Assembly: GCA_023390695.1 (NCBI GenBank)
Contig: JAEWCJ010000007.1
Coordinates: 1 to 8,767 of the forward strand
Source of the DNA: Pseudomonadota bacterium
GTDB taxonomy: Bacteria; Pseudomonadota; Alphaproteobacteria; Rhizobiales; Xanthobacteraceae
Length of the DNA stretch: 8,767 nt
Direction: 5' to 3'
In this document: positions 1-7,378 of the stretch, in pieces
How the letters are laid out: each line of letters starts with the position of its first letter
Position numbering within the stretch: position 1 is the stretch's first letter
Notes under the pieces: generated by a model
Told to the model about the DNA's origin: nothing
What the model saw: only the letters and a program-made list of their open reading frames with translations
Databases searched by the model: none
Position numbers and translations under genes: made by a program

Positions 1-1804
1 CGTCGTCATGCACTTCCAGCAGATGGGCGGCGAACATCTGCGCCTTCGCCTTGATCTTGCGCGCGGCCATCGCGGTCGCCGCGCCCGACACCGGCGTCGA
101 GCGCGAACCATAGGTGCCGAGCCCATAAGGTGCGGTGTCGGTATTGCCTTCCTCGACCGTGATCTGGTCGGCGGCGATGCCGATCTCGCTGGCAATGATC
201 TGCGCGTAGGTGGTCTCGTGTCCCTGTCCCTGCGACTTGGTGCCGAGCCGCGCGATCACGCTGCCGGTCGGATGGATGCGGATCTCGGCCGAGTCGAACA
301 TCGCAATGCCGAGAATGTCGCAATTGCGCGAAGGGCCGGCCCCCACGATCTCGGTAAAGAAAATGACGCCGATACCCATCAATTCGCGGGTCTCGCCGCG
401 TTTGAAGGCCTCGCGTTTGGCCTTCTGCTCTTCGCGCAGCGCCGTGTAGCCGACGGCATCGAGCGCCTTCTGCATGGCCATGTGATAGTCGCCGGAATCG
501 TATTCCCAGCCGAGCGCCGAGGTATAGGGAAACTGCTCGCGCCGGATGAAGTTCTTCATGCGGAACTCGGCCGGATCCATGCCGAGCTTCTGCGCCATGA
601 TATCCATCGCGCGCTCGATGCAATAAGCCGCCTCGGTGACCCGGAACGAGCAGCGGTACGCAACGCCACCCGGCGCCTTGTTGGAATAGACGCCGTCCAC
701 GGCCACATGCGCGACCGGAAAATCGTAGGAGCCGGTGACGATATTGAAGAAACCGGCCGGCCATTTGCTGGGATCGGCGCAGGCGTCGAAGGCGCCATGG
801 TCGGCAAGCGTATGAACGCGAAGCCCGGTCACCTTGCCGTCCTTGGTACAGGCGATTTCCGTGGTCATGTGATAGTCGCGCGCGAAGGCCGTGGTCGACA
901 GATTCTCGATCCGGTCCTCGACCCATTTTACCGGCCGCCCTGTCACGATCGAAGCGACGATCGCACAGATATAGCCGGGATAGGCGCCGACCTTGTTGCC
1001 GAAGCCGCCCCCGATATCGGGCGCAATCACGTGAATCTTGTGTTCGGGGATTTTCGAGATCAGCGAGGCCACCGTGCGGATGACATGCGGCGCCTGGAAC
1101 GTACCATAAAGCGTCAGGTCGCCCTTGATCTTGTCGAAGGACGCGAGGCACTGGCAGGTCTCGAGCGGGCAAGGATGCACACGCTGATACGTGATCATCT
1201 CCTTGATCGTCACATCGGCCTTGCGAAAGGCCGCGTCGGTGGCGTCCTTGTCGCCCATCTCCCAGGTGAAGATATGATTGTAGTGCTTGCGCTGGCCGTG
1301 CGCGCCTTCGGTCTTGTCCTTGATGTCCTCACGCAGCACGGGCGCATCGGCCGCCATCGCCTTGAACGGATCGATCACGACCGGCAAGGCCTCGTATTCG
1401 ACTTCCACCAGATCCGCCGCATCGGCCGCTGCATAACGATCTTCCGCAACGACGAACGCGACCTCCTGGTTCTGATACAGCACCTTCTCTTCCGCCAGCA
1501 CCGCAGCGACATCGCCGGCCAGCGTCGGCATGTAATGCAGGCCGAGCGGCTTCAGATCCGCCGCAGTGAGCACGGCCAGCACGCCCGGCACCGCCCTGGC
1601 CTTCGCGGTGTCGATTTTCCTGATACGCGCATGTGCGTAGGGCGAACGCGTGAAGTCGCCGTAAAGCATGCCGGGTATCTTGACGTCGTCAACATAAGTG
1701 CCCTTTCCTTGCGTGAAGCGAATGTCTTCGACGCGCTTGCGCTTGCAACCCAGGCCCTGCAGCTTTTCGGCGCGTTCCGTCGCGGTGGGGGTCATGTCGT
1801 TCAT
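1..1804 (-). CDS. coxL: Aerobic CO dehydrogenase, molybdenum (large) subunit, form I; 3' end cut by window edge
   Basis: This is the catalytic subunit of the (LMS)2 molybdenum-copper CO dehydrogenase, which oxidises CO with water to CO2 and passes electrons through CoxS and CoxM to the respiratory chain. The first 601 residues are visible; the family is about 800 residues, so roughly 200 are missing. Visible motifs are GGGFG (265-269), the active-site loop AYRCSFR with Cys385, and the molybdopterin-contacting GQGHETT (526-532). AYxCSFR defines form I enzymes, whose cysteine holds the copper of the Mo-S-Cu centre; form II relatives carry AYxGAGR. The catalytic glutamate near the C terminus lies outside the window. 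The ATG at 1804 overlaps the coxS stop by four bases (ATGA) and has an AGGAGG ribosome site seven bases upstream, which decides the start and suggests translational coupling. No frameshift was seen. Confidence 0.96.
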
Positions 1805-2301
1805 TCTGCGGCCTCCTGGTACTGCGTGCCGTTCAGCTTGGCGGCGGCGTATTGGATCGCCTTCACGATGTTCTGATAGCCGGTGCAACGGCACAGATTG
1901 CCGGCAATACCGAAACGGATCTCCTCCTCGCTCGGTGAGGGATTCTCCTGCAGCAGCCTGTGCGCACGGGTGATCATGCCCGGCGTACAGAAACCGCATT
2001 GCAGACCATGCATTTCGCGAAAACCTTCCTGCAGCGCGTGCAGCGTGCCGTCGGGATTGGCGATGCCTTCGATGGTGAGGATCTCCGCGCCGTCCGCCTG
2101 CACCGCGAACATGGTGCAGGCTTTCACCGATTTTCCGTTGATATCGACCGTGCACGCACCGCAATGGGTGGTATCGCAACCGATATGCGGACCGGTGAGG
2201 TTGAGCTGTTCCCGCAGAAAATGGATCAGCAAAGTGCGGGGCTCGACCAGAGCCTCTTCCGTCTTGCCGTTGACGGTCAGGGTGATGTGCGATTTGGGCA
2301 T
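1801..2301 (-). CDS. coxS: Aerobic CO dehydrogenase, iron-sulfur (small) subunit
   Basis: A 166-residue protein carrying two [2Fe-2S] clusters that relay electrons from the CoxL molybdenum-copper site to FAD in CoxM. The N-terminal plant-ferredoxin-like domain supplies C42, C47, C50 and C62 (motif [10 protein letters not shown], then C62). The C-terminal helical domain supplies C102 and C105 (QCGFCTPG) and C137 and C139 (NLCRCTGY). All eight ligands are present, and their spacing matches the well-studied Oligotropha carboxidovorans CoxS as I recall it. Length is normal for the family. The start at 2301 lies 14 bases after the coxM stop, with a moderate AGAGAG-type ribosome site. The stop overlaps the coxL start. 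The order M-S-L is the canonical one for this enzyme. Similar subunits occur in xanthine dehydrogenase-type enzymes; the CoxL motif decides for CO dehydrogenase. Confidence 0.96.
1812..1817 (-). promoter_or_regulatory. Ribosome binding site of coxL inside the coxS 3' end
   Basis: A perfect AGGAGG on the minus strand lies seven bases before the coxL ATG, within the last codons of coxS. Together with the ATGA stop/start overlap it fixes the coxL start at 1804 rather than at the in-frame ATG three codons later. Confidence 0.8.
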
Positions 2302-2315
2302 GGGATTTCTCTCTG

Positions 2316-3182
2316 TCAGGCGCGCGCGCGGTCTTTGGCGCGGGCAAGAGCGCGGGCGAACATCACGCCCGCCATCTTGGTGCGGTAGCGCGCCGGACCA
2401 CGGCCATCCGAGGCTGGCGCGGTGATGGCTTCGGCCGCGGCCACCGCTTTCTTCACCGTTGCGTCATCCAATGCAGAGCCGATGAGAATTCTCGCGGCGT
2501 CCTCGGCCCACAATGCCGTTTCCGCAACATTGGTCAGGCCGATGGAACAGGTCGCAACCCTGTCGCCGTTCATCGTGAGGATCACCGCGGCAGCCGCAGT
2601 CGCGTAGTCGCCGATCTTGCGCTTCAGCTTTTCGTAGGCCCAGCCGTGACCAGCCGGCGGCGTCGAGATGCGGATCGCGGTCAGGATCTCGCCGGGCTCC
2701 AACGCAGTAAAATAGGCGCCCTGATAGAAATCGCGCGCGGCGATCCGACGCTCGCCGGCTTTGCCGGTGAGTTGATAAACCGCATCCAGGCACATCATCA
2801 CGCCCGGCATGTCGTTGCCCGGATCGCCATTGGCGACATTGCCGCCCAGCGTGCCGAGATAACGCACCTGCGGATCGGCGATCACTAGCGACGTCTCGCG
2901 CAGGATCGGGAGCTTGGCGGTGAGCAAATCCGAGCCGATCAGCTCATGCTGCGTCGTCATGGCTCCGATAACGATGTCGGCGCCGTCTTCATGAATTCCC
3001 TTGAGATCGGCGACACCAGCAAGGTCGATCAGATGCGCCGGACTTGCCAGCCGCAGCTTCATCATCGGTATGAGGCTATGTCCTCCAGCCAGCGGGCGCG
3101 CATCGTCGCCAAGCGATGCCAGCAGACCGACGGCGTCTTCGACGGATGCGGGGCGATGGTAGGCAAAAGATCCGGGGATCAT
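2316..3182 (-). CDS. coxM: Aerobic CO dehydrogenase, FAD-binding (medium) subunit
   Basis: A 288-residue flavoprotein of the molybdenum hydroxylase family. It takes electrons from the CoxS clusters onto FAD and delivers them to the quinone pool. The two FAD pyrophosphate-binding motifs are visible: AGGHS at residues 32-36 and TLGGN at 111-115, positions that match the known CoxM proteins as I recall them. The motif [20 protein letters not shown] is typical of the family. The C-terminal third is the usual CO dehydrogenase flavoprotein C-terminal domain. The start at 3182 is supported by an AAGGAG ribosome site five bases upstream and by the conserved N terminus ([11 protein letters not shown]). 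It is the first gene of the coxMSL run. Upstream lie a possible promoter, a folded leader and a four-copy repeat array, so transcription control of the operon probably acts here. Confidence 0.95.
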
Positions 3183-3187
3183 CGGCG

Positions 3188-3193
3188 CTCCTT
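3188..3193 (-). promoter_or_regulatory. Ribosome binding site of coxM
   Basis: AAGGAG on the minus strand, five bases before the coxM ATG at 3182. It sits directly downstream of an inverted-repeat leader (3196-3244), so folding of that leader could influence its access. Confidence 0.7.
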
Positions 3194-3195
3194 CC

Positions 3196-3244
3196 GGGCG
3201 CCCAAGCCCGCTGGCTTACGGCCAGTGTCCTTTGACGGGCGCCC
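3196..3244 (-). promoter_or_regulatory. Possible folded leader of coxM
   Basis: The self-complementary octamer GGGCGCCC occurs twice, at 3196-3203 and 3237-3244, so the two copies can pair with each other as an outer stem. Between them lies CTGGC-TTACG-GCCAG (3211-3225), a 5-bp stem with a 5-base loop. On the coxM transcript the structure would end two bases before the AAGGAG ribosome site. It may be a leader structure affecting translation or mRNA stability; no known riboswitch class is recognised. Each octamer could also act alone as a palindromic protein site. Confidence 0.35.
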
Positions 3245-3247
3245 TCC

Positions 3248-3275
3248 TCCATATGATTGCGGCAAGCGTGTCCAA
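3248..3275 (-). promoter_or_regulatory. Candidate coxM promoter (sigma-70 like)
   Basis: On the minus strand TTGGAC (3275-3270) and TATGGA (3253-3248) are separated by 16 bases, a weak match to -35 and -10 boxes. The pair lies between the four-copy repeat array and the coxM leader, where an activator-dependent promoter would be expected, with the nearest repeat 27 bases upstream of the -35 box. Weak boxes would fit a promoter that needs an activator. This is inference from spacing; the sequence match alone is not strong. Confidence 0.25.
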
Positions 3276-3302
3276 GGGTGCGCCGCAGCAACAAGTGAAG
3301 GA

Positions 3303-3370
3303 GCACGAAACGGGCCGGAGAAGCACGAATGGCTGCCGCAACGCACGAATGGCGGCAAGCCAGCACGAAT
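3303..3370 (-). repeat. Four direct repeats of ATTCGTGC at exact 20-bp period (candidate CO-regulator operator)
   Basis: On the plus strand GCACGAA starts at 3303, 3323, 3343 and 3363. The first copy is followed by A and the other three by T. On the coding (minus) strand this reads ATTCGTGC three times and then TTTCGTGC, with 12-base spacers. The spacers differ from one another, so this is not a simple tandem duplication; only the octamer is kept. LytTR-domain regulators typically bind paired direct repeats about two helical turns apart, with a spacer near 12 bases. The array lies between a LytTR regulator gene (coxC-like) and coxMSL, upstream of the candidate coxM promoter. I infer that it is the operator for that regulator. 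A related partial copy (TCACGAAT reading) ends at 3423. Confidence 0.7.
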
Positions 3371-3423
3371 TGCGACAGCGGTCCTGACCTAAAAGCTCGG
3401 CTTATGCGGACAGCATCACGAAT

Positions 3424-4713
3424 CTATTGCGACGCAGCATGCGCTGCAGGCTCGGTCTGCGACGGCACCGTTTCTGCCGACATTGCCTTGATGCGCGATT
3501 TCAGCCAGCCGATGCGGCTGCGGCTGACCGGAACGGCGTAATGCTCGGTGGCCGCGAGTTCGACCAGTTCCGTGTCGCCCGAGCGCCGATAGCCGATCAC
3601 CCGCTCTATGTTGACGATGTGACTGCGATGGATGCGCACGAACCGGTTCTGGTCGAGCCGGCCCTCGATGTCGCCTATCGACAGCGGACAGAACAACTTG
3701 GCACTGCCATTGAAGATATATGCGTAGTGCGCGTTGGCATGGACCGCGACCACGTCGTCAACGGACAGGAATTGCGTGGCCCCTTCGCGCTCGATCGGCA
3801 AATGGCGGGCCTTGCGTGCCGGCGGCCCACCGGCGCCGCCCAGGGGACCATAATTTCCGCGGCCCGGTTCCCCCTCCATGGCTCCAGGAACGAGATCGGC
3901 GCCGGCAGATGTTTCGCCAACGGCGGGCGGCGGCAAGCCAGCCAATTCCGCTTCGGACGGCACGTCATCGCGCGACCGGTCGGGCACCAGGAACAGCAGG
4001 AATATGCCGGAGACGCAAAAACCGACAATGGCGACCACGATAGCCAGCAGATCGGACGACAGAGCGGGCGCTTGCGATGGCGCGCCGGCATGCGGAAACA
4101 GCGTCATGCCCTCCATCGCCATATAGTGCATGCCAGATACGGCGATGCCGAAGGCAACAGCCGACAGCAACAAGGGCGGCCGTCTTCCGCGCTCCGTCGC
4201 AAGCCAGAGCGCAAGGCCGGACGCCACGATCGCAATGGCCAGGCTGGCCGCGACATATGGAGAAGAGTGAACCATATGCGTGCTGGCATGCAGCGCCGTC
4301 ATGCCGATGTAATGCATCGAGACGATGCCCGCGCCCATCAGGCATGCAGACAGCGTGAGCCGCATCGGTGTCAGCAGCCCTGAACTGGTGAAGTAAACCG
4401 CGATACCGACCACGATCACGCAGACGAGGAACGAGAGCAGCGTGGGGAACGCCAGATAATCGACTGGAAATGGCAGCCGGGCGGCCAGCATCCCGACGAA
4501 ATGCATGGTCCAGATTGCCAGTGCGAGAGAAAGCGCGGCGGCGGCCAGCAGCAGGCGTCTACGCATGCCGGTTGCCTCGCGGACCTGCACCGCCAGACCC
4601 AGACCGACATAAGCTCCCTGAATCGCCATTACGACCGAGAGCAGCACAAGCCATGGCTCATACGTTACCGGCAAGCTGTCATCCTCATAGGCAGCGTTCG
4701 GCAACCGCCTCAT
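3424..4713 (-). CDS. coxC: Membrane MHYT sensor-LytTR DNA-binding regulator, CoxC-like
   Basis: A 429-residue predicted integral membrane transcription factor. The N-terminal MHYT domain has about seven membrane segments (roughly 21-42, 52-77, 85-110, 117-140, 152-171, 178-206, 223-245) and three signature motifs: MHFVGM (70-75), MHYIGM (133-138) and MHYMAM (195-200). MHYT domains have been proposed to sense diatomic gases (O2, CO, NO) through a bound metal. A proline- and glycine-rich linker (about 246-302) leads to a C-terminal LytTR DNA-binding domain (about 303-410; FVRIHRSHIVNIERV is characteristic). This MHYT-LytTR architecture is that of CoxC and CoxH in the Oligotropha cox cluster, where coxC directly precedes coxM, as here. 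CoxH has the same layout, so the name rests on position. Start: ATG at 4713 with a weak AAGG site; an in-frame TTG at codon 14, preceded by GAGG, is an alternative. Likely role: CO-responsive control of coxMSL. Confidence 0.88.
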   Translation of the reverse strand: MRRLPNAAYEDDSLPVTYEPWLVLLSVVMAIQGAYVGLGLAVQVREATGMRRRLLLAAAALSLALAIWTMHFVGMLAARLPFPVDYLAFPTLLSFLVCVIVVGIAVYFTSSGLLTPMRLTLSACLMGAGIVSMHYIGMTALHASTHMVHSSPYVAASLAIAIVASGLALWLATERGRRPPLLLSAVAFGIAVSGMHYMAMEGMTLFPHAGAPSQAPALSSDLLAIVVAIVGFCVSGIFLLFLVPDRSRDDVPSEAELAGLPPPAVGETSAGADLVPGAMEGEPGRGNYGPLGGAGGPPARKARHLPIEREGATQFLSVDDVVAVHANAHYAYIFNGSAKLFCPLSIGDIEGRLDQNRFVRIHRSHIVNIERVIGYRRSGDTELVELAATEHYAVPVSRSRIGWLKSRIKAMSAETVPSQTEPAAHAASQ

Positions 4714-5005
4714 ATAGGCGCCTTAGAACAAATATAGGCTATTTCGGGAGCCGGGACGAGCGTGCTTGTGATCGCATCAAGACGAATTTGACAGGAGCGG
4801 CAGAGACCTCATGTCACAGGCTTTCTCGGCGAATTTTCAGACTCTCACGATCCGCAATGCCCGTAACCGGTGCTCCAGCCTGAAATCGATCCACGCAGAA
4901 GCACATGATGCCGCTCCGCCGTCAGGCAATGCGGGATACCCGCCCGTTTGCCCTTTGAATGCTGGATCAGCTTGGCTGATTCCCCGCGCTCGGGAACCGG
5001 ACGCG
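4714..5005. other. Non-coding stretch upstream of coxC-like gene
   Basis: No convincing gene is seen in these 292 bases. Open frames crossing it are continuations of frames antisense to the neighbouring exported-protein gene. It should contain the promoter of the coxC-like gene, but I find no convincing -35/-10 pair. Small inverted repeats are GCGGG-ATA-CCCGC (4931-4943) and TTCCC-N7-GGGAA (4980-4996). The second lies just past the stop of the gene ending at 5006 and might help end its transcript, but it has no T-tract. One partial match to the coxM array octamer (ATTCGTCT on the minus strand, 4787-4780) is present. Confidence 0.5.
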
Positions 5006-5335
5006 CTAGCCGCGCACCCAGCGGCAACGCATCTGCGGCGTGACGACAGTGCCGCTCGGCCGATGCTCGGTCAGATACCAGTCCTCGCATTGGCGATAGG
5101 CCGGGGCAGGCGCCGGCCAGGAATATTCGTCCGGCCGCGGATAGGGCCAGAAGGACGGCTGCGACTGCGGCTGCACCCGGATGCGGGTGCGCGCGCGGCG
5201 CTCCTGTGCGGACAATTCCGACGGCGCATGAAGGCCGGCATTCTGGGCAACGGCGGGTGTACTCATGCCGAGCGAAAGGATGCCAGCCGCTGCCAACACT
5301 GCAAAAGCCGCAAGGCCTGACCTGAAAATGCTCAT
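5006..5335 (-). CDS. Small exported protein of unknown function
   Basis: A 109-residue protein that I cannot assign to a named family. A signal peptide is clear: basic start (MSIFRSG), hydrophobic core to about residue 22, and an AVA cleavage site after residue 30, so the mature protein of about 79 residues is probably periplasmic. The mature part is basic (RRARTRIR), then rich in proline and tryptophan (about 57-80), and ends in a compact segment with C83 and C104 that could form a disulfide (EDWYLTEHRPSGTVVTP between them). The style is common among conserved hypothetical proteins of Hyphomicrobiales. It runs in the same direction as the cox genes but is 292 bases from the coxC-like start, so co-transcription is uncertain. 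There is no visible link to CO metabolism. Confidence 0.75.
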   Translation of the reverse strand: MSIFRSGLAAFAVLAAAGILSLGMSTPAVAQNAGLHAPSELSAQERRARTRIRVQPQSQPSFWPYPRPDEYSWPAPAPAYRQCEDWYLTEHRPSGTVVTPQMRCRWVRG

Positions 5336-6762: not shown

Positions 6763-7368
6763 ATGGACAAGTTTACCGTGCTGGAAGGCGTCGCGGCGCC
6801 GCTGCGAGTGGTCAATGTCGACACCGACATGATCATCCCGAAACAATATCTGAAGACCATCAAGCGCACCGGTCTCGGCAAGGGCCTGTTCTCGGAGAAG
6901 CGCTACAATGACGACGGCAGCGAGAATCCGGATTTCGTGCTCAACCAACCGGCCTATCGCAACGCCAAGATCCTGGTCGCCGGCGACAATTTCGGCTGCG
7001 GCTCCTCGCGCGAACACGCACCCTGGGCGCTGCTCGATTTCGGCATCCGCTGCGTGATCTCGACCTCGTTCGGCGACATTTTCTACAACAACAGCTTCAA
7101 GAACGGCATCCTGCCGATCCGTGTTTCGCCCGAGGAACTGGAGAAGCTGTTTGACGACGCCGAACGCGGCGCCAACGCAACGCTGACCATCGACCTCGAG
7201 AATCAGGAAATCCGCGGTCCCGATGGGGGCGCCATCAAGTTCGAGATCGATCCCTTCCGCAAACACTGCCTGCTCAATGGCCTCGACGATATCGGCCTGA
7301 CGATGGTCAAGCAGGACAAGATCGACACTTTCGAAAACAAGACCAAAACCGAGCGGCCCTGGCTGTAA
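6763..7368 (+). CDS. leuD: 3-isopropylmalate dehydratase small subunit
   Basis: A 201-residue cytoplasmic protein, full length for the family. With LeuC (the [4Fe-4S] large subunit) it isomerises 2-isopropylmalate to 3-isopropylmalate in leucine synthesis. The swivelling aconitase-type domain is clear: [12 protein letters not shown] (19-30), the long LeuD-type insertion with [12 protein letters not shown] (37-48), the signature [17 protein letters not shown] (74-90), and a C terminus with [18 protein letters not shown] (163-180). GCGSSREH contributes substrate-binding residues in the family. The conserved start [14 protein letters not shown] and a good ribosome site support 6763. leuC and leuB are not in the window; in many alphaproteobacteria leuC and leuD are separated by other genes. 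A stable hairpin lies about 56 bases upstream of the start, and a small exported-protein gene follows after 10 bases. Confidence 0.97.
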
Positions 7369-7378
7369 CGAGACGTCC

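What the first reader, a model, noticed from the sequence alone, without database searches (positions are those of the whole stretch)
3303..3370. Four-copy, exactly 20-bp-phased octamer array between a LytTR regulator gene and coxMSL
Seen: GCACGAA(T/A) begins at 3303, 3323, 3343 and 3363 with unrelated 12-base spacers, so the octamer rather than a tandem block is conserved. Known: LytTR domains bind pairs of direct repeats about two helical turns apart. Inferred: this is the operator through which the adjacent MHYT-LytTR (CoxC-like) protein controls CO dehydrogenase. Four sites in phase could bind two LytTR dimers on one face of the DNA, which would suit a membrane-tethered regulator.
Basis: partly seen in the sequence, partly recalled or inferred. 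Interest (0 to 1): 0.75.

Follow-up and report, generated by a model that had tools for sequence, protein, structure and literature searches.

The report
Conserved CoxC-type operator before coxMSL
Four evenly spaced copies of a short DNA word sit just before the genes for a carbon-monoxide-burning enzyme, and the same word at the same spacing is found at that spot in most related bacteria checked, so it is very probably the switch site of the neighbouring membrane CO sensor.

Summary
The array is real: ATTCGTGC/TTTCGTGC (minus strand) four times at exactly 20 bp, between an MHYT-LytTR gene (CoxC-like) and form I coxMSL; 0 of 3000 shuffles of the gap reached four in phase. It is strongly conserved. 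With the window left out, TTCGTGC is the most widespread 7-mer in 72 distinct coxC-coxM gaps (63 of 72). In a held-out set, 55 of 61 coxM genes with a LytTR gene upstream on the same strand carry the array. The octamer fits the published CoxC (TTNNNGCN) repeats and nearly RcoM1's TTCNNGCA (PMC11347149). What differs from the literature: the published CoxC operator is at PcoxB and overlaps its -35; this one is at a separate, predicted coxM promoter, lies upstream of a conserved TTG (-35) at 15 or 26 bp from the last or third repeat (one helical turn apart), has four copies where two or three are usual, and is abutted by a second, clade-limited element, GTCR-N6-CTGACGCA. A. carboxidovorans OM5 itself carries a three-repeat version here that the paper's main text passages I saw do not mention. 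Activation or repression remains open.

The parts
3363..3370 (-). octamer site 1, ATTCGTGC (followed by T)
3343..3350 (-). octamer site 2, ATTCGTGC (followed by G)
3323..3330 (-). octamer site 3, ATTCGTGC (followed by T)
3303..3310 (-). octamer site 4, TTTCGTGC (followed by T), nearest to the predicted promoter
3371..3388 (-). window's copy of the second conserved element GTCR-N6-CTGACGCA, abutting site 1 (here GTCAGGACCGCTGTCGCA, one mismatch)
   Evidence: column conservation over 70 distinct arrays; TGACGCA in 56 of 72 gaps; in the held-out set only 23 of 61
3289..3294 (-). predicted -35 of a coxM promoter, TTGTTG, 15 bp after the start of the TTCGTGC of site 4
   Evidence: TTG at 15 or 26 bp (plus or minus 1) in 65 of 70 distinct arrays (offsets chosen after seeing the data); 30 of 61 in the held-out set
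3265..3270 (-). predicted -10, CACGCT, 18-bp spacer
   Evidence: hexamer nAnnnT at 17 or 18 bp behind the TTG in 49 of those 65; at seven other spacer pairs 0 to 19 of 65. Not met in OM5. No transcript data
3424..4713 (-). CoxC-like regulator, MHYT sensor (Pfam PF03707) fused to LytTR DNA-binding domain (PF04397, residues 315-408)
2316..3182 (-). coxM, medium (FAD) subunit of aerobic CO dehydrogenase
1801..2301 (-). coxS, small (2Fe-2S) subunit
2..1804 (-). coxL, large subunit, cut by the window end; AYRCSFR motif of form I (meaning of the motif recalled)
   Evidence: translation

Best explanation
The array is the operator of a promoter that starts just upstream of coxM, and the MHYT-LytTR protein encoded next door (a CoxC orthologue) binds it through its LytTR domain, one domain per octamer, all on the same face of the helix. 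The membrane MHYT part senses CO (shown by others for A. carboxidovorans CoxC) and changes occupancy of the operator, so that CO dehydrogenase is made when CO is there. Shown here: the array, its conservation, its tie to coxM and to MHYT-LytTR genes, and its match to published CoxC/RcoM1 repeats. Inferred: binding, CO response at this site, and the promoter.
For: Phased octamers. TTCGTGC is the most widespread 7-mer in 72 other distinct gaps (63), second is TGACGCA (56). In 75 gaps, 97 TTCGTGC on the cox strand and 0 on the other, 5.5 per kb against 0.13 per kb in the rest of the loci on that strand. Of 120 octamer-core pairs up to 65 bp apart, 114 are 19-21, 39-41 or 60-61 bp apart. Scan of 83 sequences, both strands, 1.9 Mb: 72 chains of score 15 or more in coxC-coxM gaps, 4 others at or directly behind the end of a coxC-like gene, 1 stray. 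Held-out 55 of 61. The array stays with coxM where 2.4 kb separate coxC from coxM (L049). The two clusters that have an array but no regulator found in the 4-5 kb upstream (L202, L203) lie in genomes with an MHYT-LytTR match spanning both domains on another contig; G739, with no such match, has no array. Repeat spacing equals RcoM1's and the sequence fits CoxC's TTNNNGCN (PMC11347149). Pfam MHYT + LytTR.
Against: No binding, footprint or expression data for this DNA. OM5 CoxC was shown to act at PcoxB, where its sites overlap the -35 and it represses; nothing that I found in print tests the coxM gap. OM5 and some relatives carry a second MHYT-LytTR protein (CoxH), which could be the binder. 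Three of 76 gaps score under 13 (L011, L030, L067; L067 has its array at the coxC end) and six of 61 held-out cases do (L122, L130, L136, L174, L184, L189). G483 has a regulator match about 11 kb from coxM and only one good octamer there; L154 in G401 has no array although that genome has a CoxC at its other cox cluster. L014 has a CoxC-like gene (55%) and neither coxM nor an array. The promoter distances were picked after looking at the data and hold in only 30 of 61 held-out cases.
Confidence: 0.88

Rival explanations
1. The array is an operator, but the binder is another LytTR protein (CoxH, or an RcoM-type regulator) rather than the adjacent CoxC.
For: OM5 has two MHYT-LytTR genes; 2 of the 27 matched family genomes have two near full-length matches (G176, G201). 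RcoM1 reads nearly the same octamer (TTCNNGCA), and a cluster with an RcoM-like LytTR gene on the opposite strand (L192) has TTCGTGCA upstream of coxM.
Against: The array lies directly behind the coxC-like gene in most clusters examined; the three clusters with a LytTR gene on the opposite strand score below 13 (L192 11.5, L193 9.2, L164 7.0). The window holds only 8.8 kb, so a second regulator nearby cannot be excluded.
Confidence: 0.2
2. CoxC on the array acts purely as a repressor, as at PcoxB, blocking the coxM promoter until CO releases it.
For: Published repression and CO release at PcoxB in E. coli (PMC11347149). The last octamer lies only 8 bp from the predicted -35 in the window, close enough for hindrance.
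Against: In 26 of 70 distinct arrays the predicted -35 is a further 11 bp away; the allowed distances differ by one helical turn, which simple blocking does not need.
Confidence: 0.42
3. The phased repeats are chance or a decayed tandem repeat without function.
For: The octamer allowing one mismatch is not over-represented in the window as a whole.
Against: 0 of 3000 shuffles; cross-genus conservation with diverged spacers; held-out confirmation.
Confidence: 0.01

Closest known systems
CoxC operator at PcoxB of Afipia carboxidovorans OM5 (Durante-Rodriguez et al. 2024, PMC11347149)
   Same: Same regulator family (MHYT-LytTR, 48% identity to the window's protein), same gene cluster type, direct repeats of an octamer fitting TTNNNGCN.
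   Different: Published operator is upstream of coxB, three repeats, overlaps the -35. By comparing the printed mutant primers with pHCG3, the published repeats TTACCGCC, TTTGGGCA, TTGCGGCA start 29 and 26 bp apart, not 20. The conserved motif suggests another register there (TTCATGCG, 21 bp, TTGGTGGA, 20 bp, TTTGGGCA), but weak: 10.7 for the first two sites against 24.6 for OM5's own coxC-coxM gap.
RcoM1 operator of Paraburkholderia xenovorans LB400 (as described in PMC11347149)
   Same: TTCNNGCA repeats with 12-13 bp spacers (20-21 bp start to start), upstream of the -35 of its target promoter.
   Different: RcoM1 is a haem-sensor LytTR activator; three repeats; none of the window's four sites has the final A. 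In a related plasmid cluster (L192) the LytTR gene stands on the opposite strand.
Generic LytTR sites (AgrA, AlgR and others; consensus recalled)
   Same: Direct repeats about two helical turns apart.
   Different: Usually a pair of 9-bp repeats with another consensus; not linked to CO.

Membership tests
Operator of a CO-sensing LytTR regulator (CoxC/RcoM1 type) | 8-bp direct repeats fitting TTNNNGCN (CoxC) / TTCNNGCA (RcoM1) | tested here: met
   all four sites read TTCGTGC[T/G] on the cox strand: four of four fit TTNNNGCN; none of four has the last A of TTCNNGCA
Operator of a CO-sensing LytTR regulator (CoxC/RcoM1 type) | 12-13 bp spacers, two-turn phasing | tested here: met
   12-bp spacers, 20/20/20; 114 of 120 core pairs up to 65 bp at 19-21 bp or multiples in 73 distinct gaps
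Operator of a CO-sensing LytTR regulator (CoxC/RcoM1 type) | three repeats | tested here: not met
   four here; among 70 distinct arrays 24 with two, 38 with three, 8 with four
Operator of a CO-sensing LytTR regulator (CoxC/RcoM1 type) | next to aerobic CO dehydrogenase genes and a cognate LytTR regulator gene | tested here: met
Operator of a CO-sensing LytTR regulator (CoxC/RcoM1 type) | bound by the LytTR domain; mutation of repeats abolishes binding and control | not testable with these tools
   needs EMSA/footprint and reporter
CoxC repressor operator as at PcoxB | overlaps the promoter -35 | tested here: not met
   array ends 8 bp upstream of the predicted -35; the promoter itself is a prediction

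The most novel reading that the evidence does not exclude
The coxC-coxM array, not the published PcoxB site, is the main and ancestral operator of the CO dehydrogenase genes in Alphaproteobacteria, and there the membrane-tethered MHYT-LytTR protein works as an RNA-polymerase-contacting activator (or switches sign by promoter), in Hyphomicrobiales together with a second factor that binds the abutting GTCR-N6-CTGACGCA element.
Probability: 0.3. Interest if true: 0.68.

Novelty: new variant of a known kind. Interest (0 to 1): 0.52.

Why it matters
Aerobic CO oxidation is a widespread survival trait, and CoxC is described as the first MHYT transcriptional regulator studied (PMC11347149). A conserved operator directly before the enzyme genes gives a defined DNA target for CO sensing in many genera, predicts a second CoxC site in the model strain OM5 that can be tested with protein already made, and asks whether the published sign (repressor) holds at the enzyme's own promoter. 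The motif also allows candidate CO regulons to be read from sequence.

Tried and rejected
Reading L075 and L078 as cases where the array serves a different target gene (an EAL-domain gene, Pfam) was rejected: both seem to hold coxM remnants between array and EAL gene (clear in L078, E 8e-8; weaker in L075, E 5e-4), so they look like decayed cox loci. A leader RNA element before coxM was considered: no Rfam match at E up to 1 and the window's leader folds little better than shuffles (z -1.2; -0.7); 5 of 22 leaders folded have z of -2.5 or lower (L011, L033, L041, L047, L065); left open. The two-octamer pattern as a genome-wide marker was rejected as too loose: 27 places in 17 of 26 genomes or records (control pattern: 3 places), and by coordinates at least 8 of the 27 lie away from the coxC locus of their genome (neighbours not examined). 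The three-octamer pattern in viral contigs gave 3 contigs, none with a coxM- or coxC-like match. An array in the 3 kb upstream of coxC was sought in 15 loci and the window, cox strand only: the highest score is 11.9 (single octamers); the best two-site chain is OM5 PcoxB at 10.7. No relative among solved structures by sequence at E up to 0.01. A structure prediction was not run; it would not decide binding.

Limits of method: the weight matrix was built from the same gaps that it then scored; independent checks are the model-free 7-mer count without the window, the strand asymmetry and the held-out set. Rows dropped: L014, L020, L056, L057, L075, L078 (no coxM with a start found) before gap counts, L029 and L049 (gap over 700 bp), L029; 6 of 86 further loci without a coxM start and 11 duplicates. 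Loci were capped at the best 80 of 521 confirmed and the best 30 of 40 places. For arrays of fewer than four copies the promoter test used both the last site and the place 40 bp after the first. Because sampled genomes are related, counts are not independent events.

Full report
OBSERVATION. The window holds, on the minus strand, an MHYT-LytTR gene (3424-4713; Pfam MHYT and LytTR), then a 241-bp gap, then coxM, coxS and most of coxL. In the gap the octamer ATTCGTGC occurs three times and TTTCGTGC once, with start-to-start distances of exactly 20 bp. A test that does not use the motif (longest constant-period chain of any 7-mer) gives 4 for the gap; 3000 dinucleotide shuffles gave at most 3, once. 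The octamer by itself is not unusual in the window: its phasing is.

CONSERVATION. A scan of genome contigs with a CoxC alignment gave the best 80 of 521 confirmed loci, to which A. carboxidovorans OM5 and Bradyrhizobium betae plasmids were added. Of these 82 loci and the window, 77 have both coxC and coxM. In 75 gaps under 700 bp, TTCGTGC occurs 97 times on the cox strand and not once on the other; 70 of 75 hold TT[C/G]GTGC. After removing identical gaps and leaving the window out, TTCGTGC is the most widespread 7-mer of all (63 of 72 gaps), followed by TGACGCA (56 of 72). Of 120 pairs of octamer cores up to 65 bp apart, 82 are at 19-21, 27 at 39-41 and 5 at 60-61 bp. A weight-matrix chain scan of all 83 sequences on both strands (1.9 Mb) found, at score 15 or more, 72 chains in gaps, one at the coxC end of L067, three behind coxC-like genes in loci without a usable coxM (L056, L075, L078), and one stray. 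Gaps scored: 76; with a chain of 13 or more: 73, of which 70 distinct; below: L011, L030, L067. The 70 have two (24), three (38) or four (8) copies; the four-copy ones all have CoxC at least 62% identical to the window's, and the window alone has exact TTCGTGC four times at 20 bp.

HELD-OUT TEST. New loci were drawn with CoxC as query in a sample of the family (198 genomes) and with CoxM in samples of the class (289), phylum (398) and order (249) of a near relative, plus four plasmid loci. Of 86 loci, 6 had no coxM start; of 80 scored, 11 duplicated earlier ones; of 69 left, 61 have a LytTR match upstream on the same strand and 55 of these 61 have a chain of 13 or more. Among them are Rhodobacterales plasmids (Marivivens L194, Roseivivax L195). 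Of the 8 others, 2 have an array (L160, L188). About 4-5 kb upstream of coxM was read for these and no LytTR gene found, but both genomes (G542, G1008) hold an MHYT-LytTR match spanning both domains on another contig; G739, without an array, shows only an MHYT-part match. Against: G401's second cox cluster has no array although the genome has a CoxC with an array at its other cluster; G483 has a regulator match about 11 kb from coxM and only one good octamer. Fisher tests: 55/61 against 2/8 gives p = 0.0002; against 2/5 (leaving out the three with an opposite-strand LytTR gene) p = 0.016; relatives are not independent.

MATCH TO KNOWN BIOLOGY. Of PMC11347149 I saw the abstract and outline, the first part of the Discussion, and passages. 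It reports that OM5 CoxC binds, by its LytTR domain, three direct repeats TTNNNGCN at PcoxB, represses there, and lets go on CO in a copper-dependent way; it cites RcoM1 as binding three TTCNNGCA repeats with 12-13 bp spacers. The window's four sites fit TTNNNGCN and the RcoM1 spacing. A search of that paper's main text for coxM, coxMSL and intergenic found one passage, in the Introduction; the supplement was not seen. Searches for other reports (listings) showed none that describes an operator between coxC and coxM, and passages of PMC6011924 do not treat it. Subscription papers such as Santiago et al. 1999 (seen only as a reference) were not available.

WHAT IS NEW. First, OM5's own coxC-coxM gap carries TTCGTGCA, TTGGTGAC, CTGGTGCG at 20/20 bp, scoring 24.6 against 10.7 for the best two sites of the PcoxB region. 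Comparing the printed mutant primers with the plasmid, the published PcoxB repeats start 29 and 26 bp apart; the conserved motif allows another register (TTCATGCG, TTGGTGGA, TTTGGGCA; 21 and 20 bp), which is an inference. Second, a TTG that looks like a -35 lies 15 bp (39) or 26 bp (26), plus or minus 1, after the last or third repeat in 65 of 70 distinct arrays (shifted controls: mean 11.7, highest 41), and in 49 of these 65 a hexamer nAnnnT follows at 17 or 18 bp (seven other spacer pairs: 0 to 19), though not in OM5. In the held-out set the TTG is met in 30 of 61. These offsets were chosen after seeing the data. One helical turn between the two distances suggests contact with RNA polymerase. 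Third, GTCR-N6-CTGACGCA abuts the first repeat: TGACGC at the exact place in 58 of 70, 67 with at most one mismatch, but 23 of 61 in the held-out set, so it is clade-limited. In the window it has one change.

MECHANISM. Shown by others: CO sensing by MHYT and release of DNA at PcoxB in OM5. Shown here: a conserved array at the presumed coxM promoter, tied to MHYT-LytTR genes. Inferred: this CoxC orthologue binds it, in a CO-dependent manner, setting coxMSL transcription. The sign is undecided: the published precedent says repressor; the geometry resembles LytTR activators. CoxH as an alternative binder is not excluded.

VERDICT. The finding is confirmed and its interpretation well supported. 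It is a new variant of a known kind: a CoxC/RcoM-type operator with four repeats, at a separate coxM promoter.

Noticed in passing
L081 (OM5 pHCG3) 7210-7378: The model strain's own coxC-coxM gap holds three phased repeats (TTCGTGCA, TTGGTGAC, CTGGTGCG at 20 bp); the passages of the CoxC paper that I found do not mention them.
   Followed up: yes
window 3371-3388 and 70 distinct arrays: Second conserved element GTCR-N6-CTGACGCA directly before repeat 1; in five loci (L005, L006, L015, L023, L060) it is an exact palindrome GCGTCAG-N5-CTGACGC. Binder unknown.
   Followed up: partly
L081 4189-4263: Published CoxC repeats at PcoxB start 29 and 26 bp apart; the conserved motif suggests a different register with 21 and 20 bp.
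   Followed up: partly
L075 3842-5138 and L078 1591-2901: Seemingly decayed cox loci: regulator and array kept, coxM reduced to remnants, an EAL-domain gene follows.
   Followed up: partly
L049: coxC and coxM are 2.4 kb apart; the array sits before coxM, not behind coxC.
   Followed up: yes
L012 coxC-coxM gap: Two separate octamer pairs about 400 bp apart in a 568-bp gap.
   Followed up: no
window 3183-3258 and relatives: Leader of coxM can fold into a hairpin near the ribosome site; hardly better than shuffles in the window, but z of -2.5 or lower in 5 of 22 leaders folded.
   Followed up: partly
L197 (viral contig), near 2751-2797: TTCGTGCA repeated four times at about 20-bp period in a contig without a cox match; meaning unknown.
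   Followed up: no
window 4714-5335: The next longer reading frame upstream of coxC on the same strand (5006-5335) has no Pfam match, so no coxB was recognised there; no dedicated coxB search was made.
   Followed up: no
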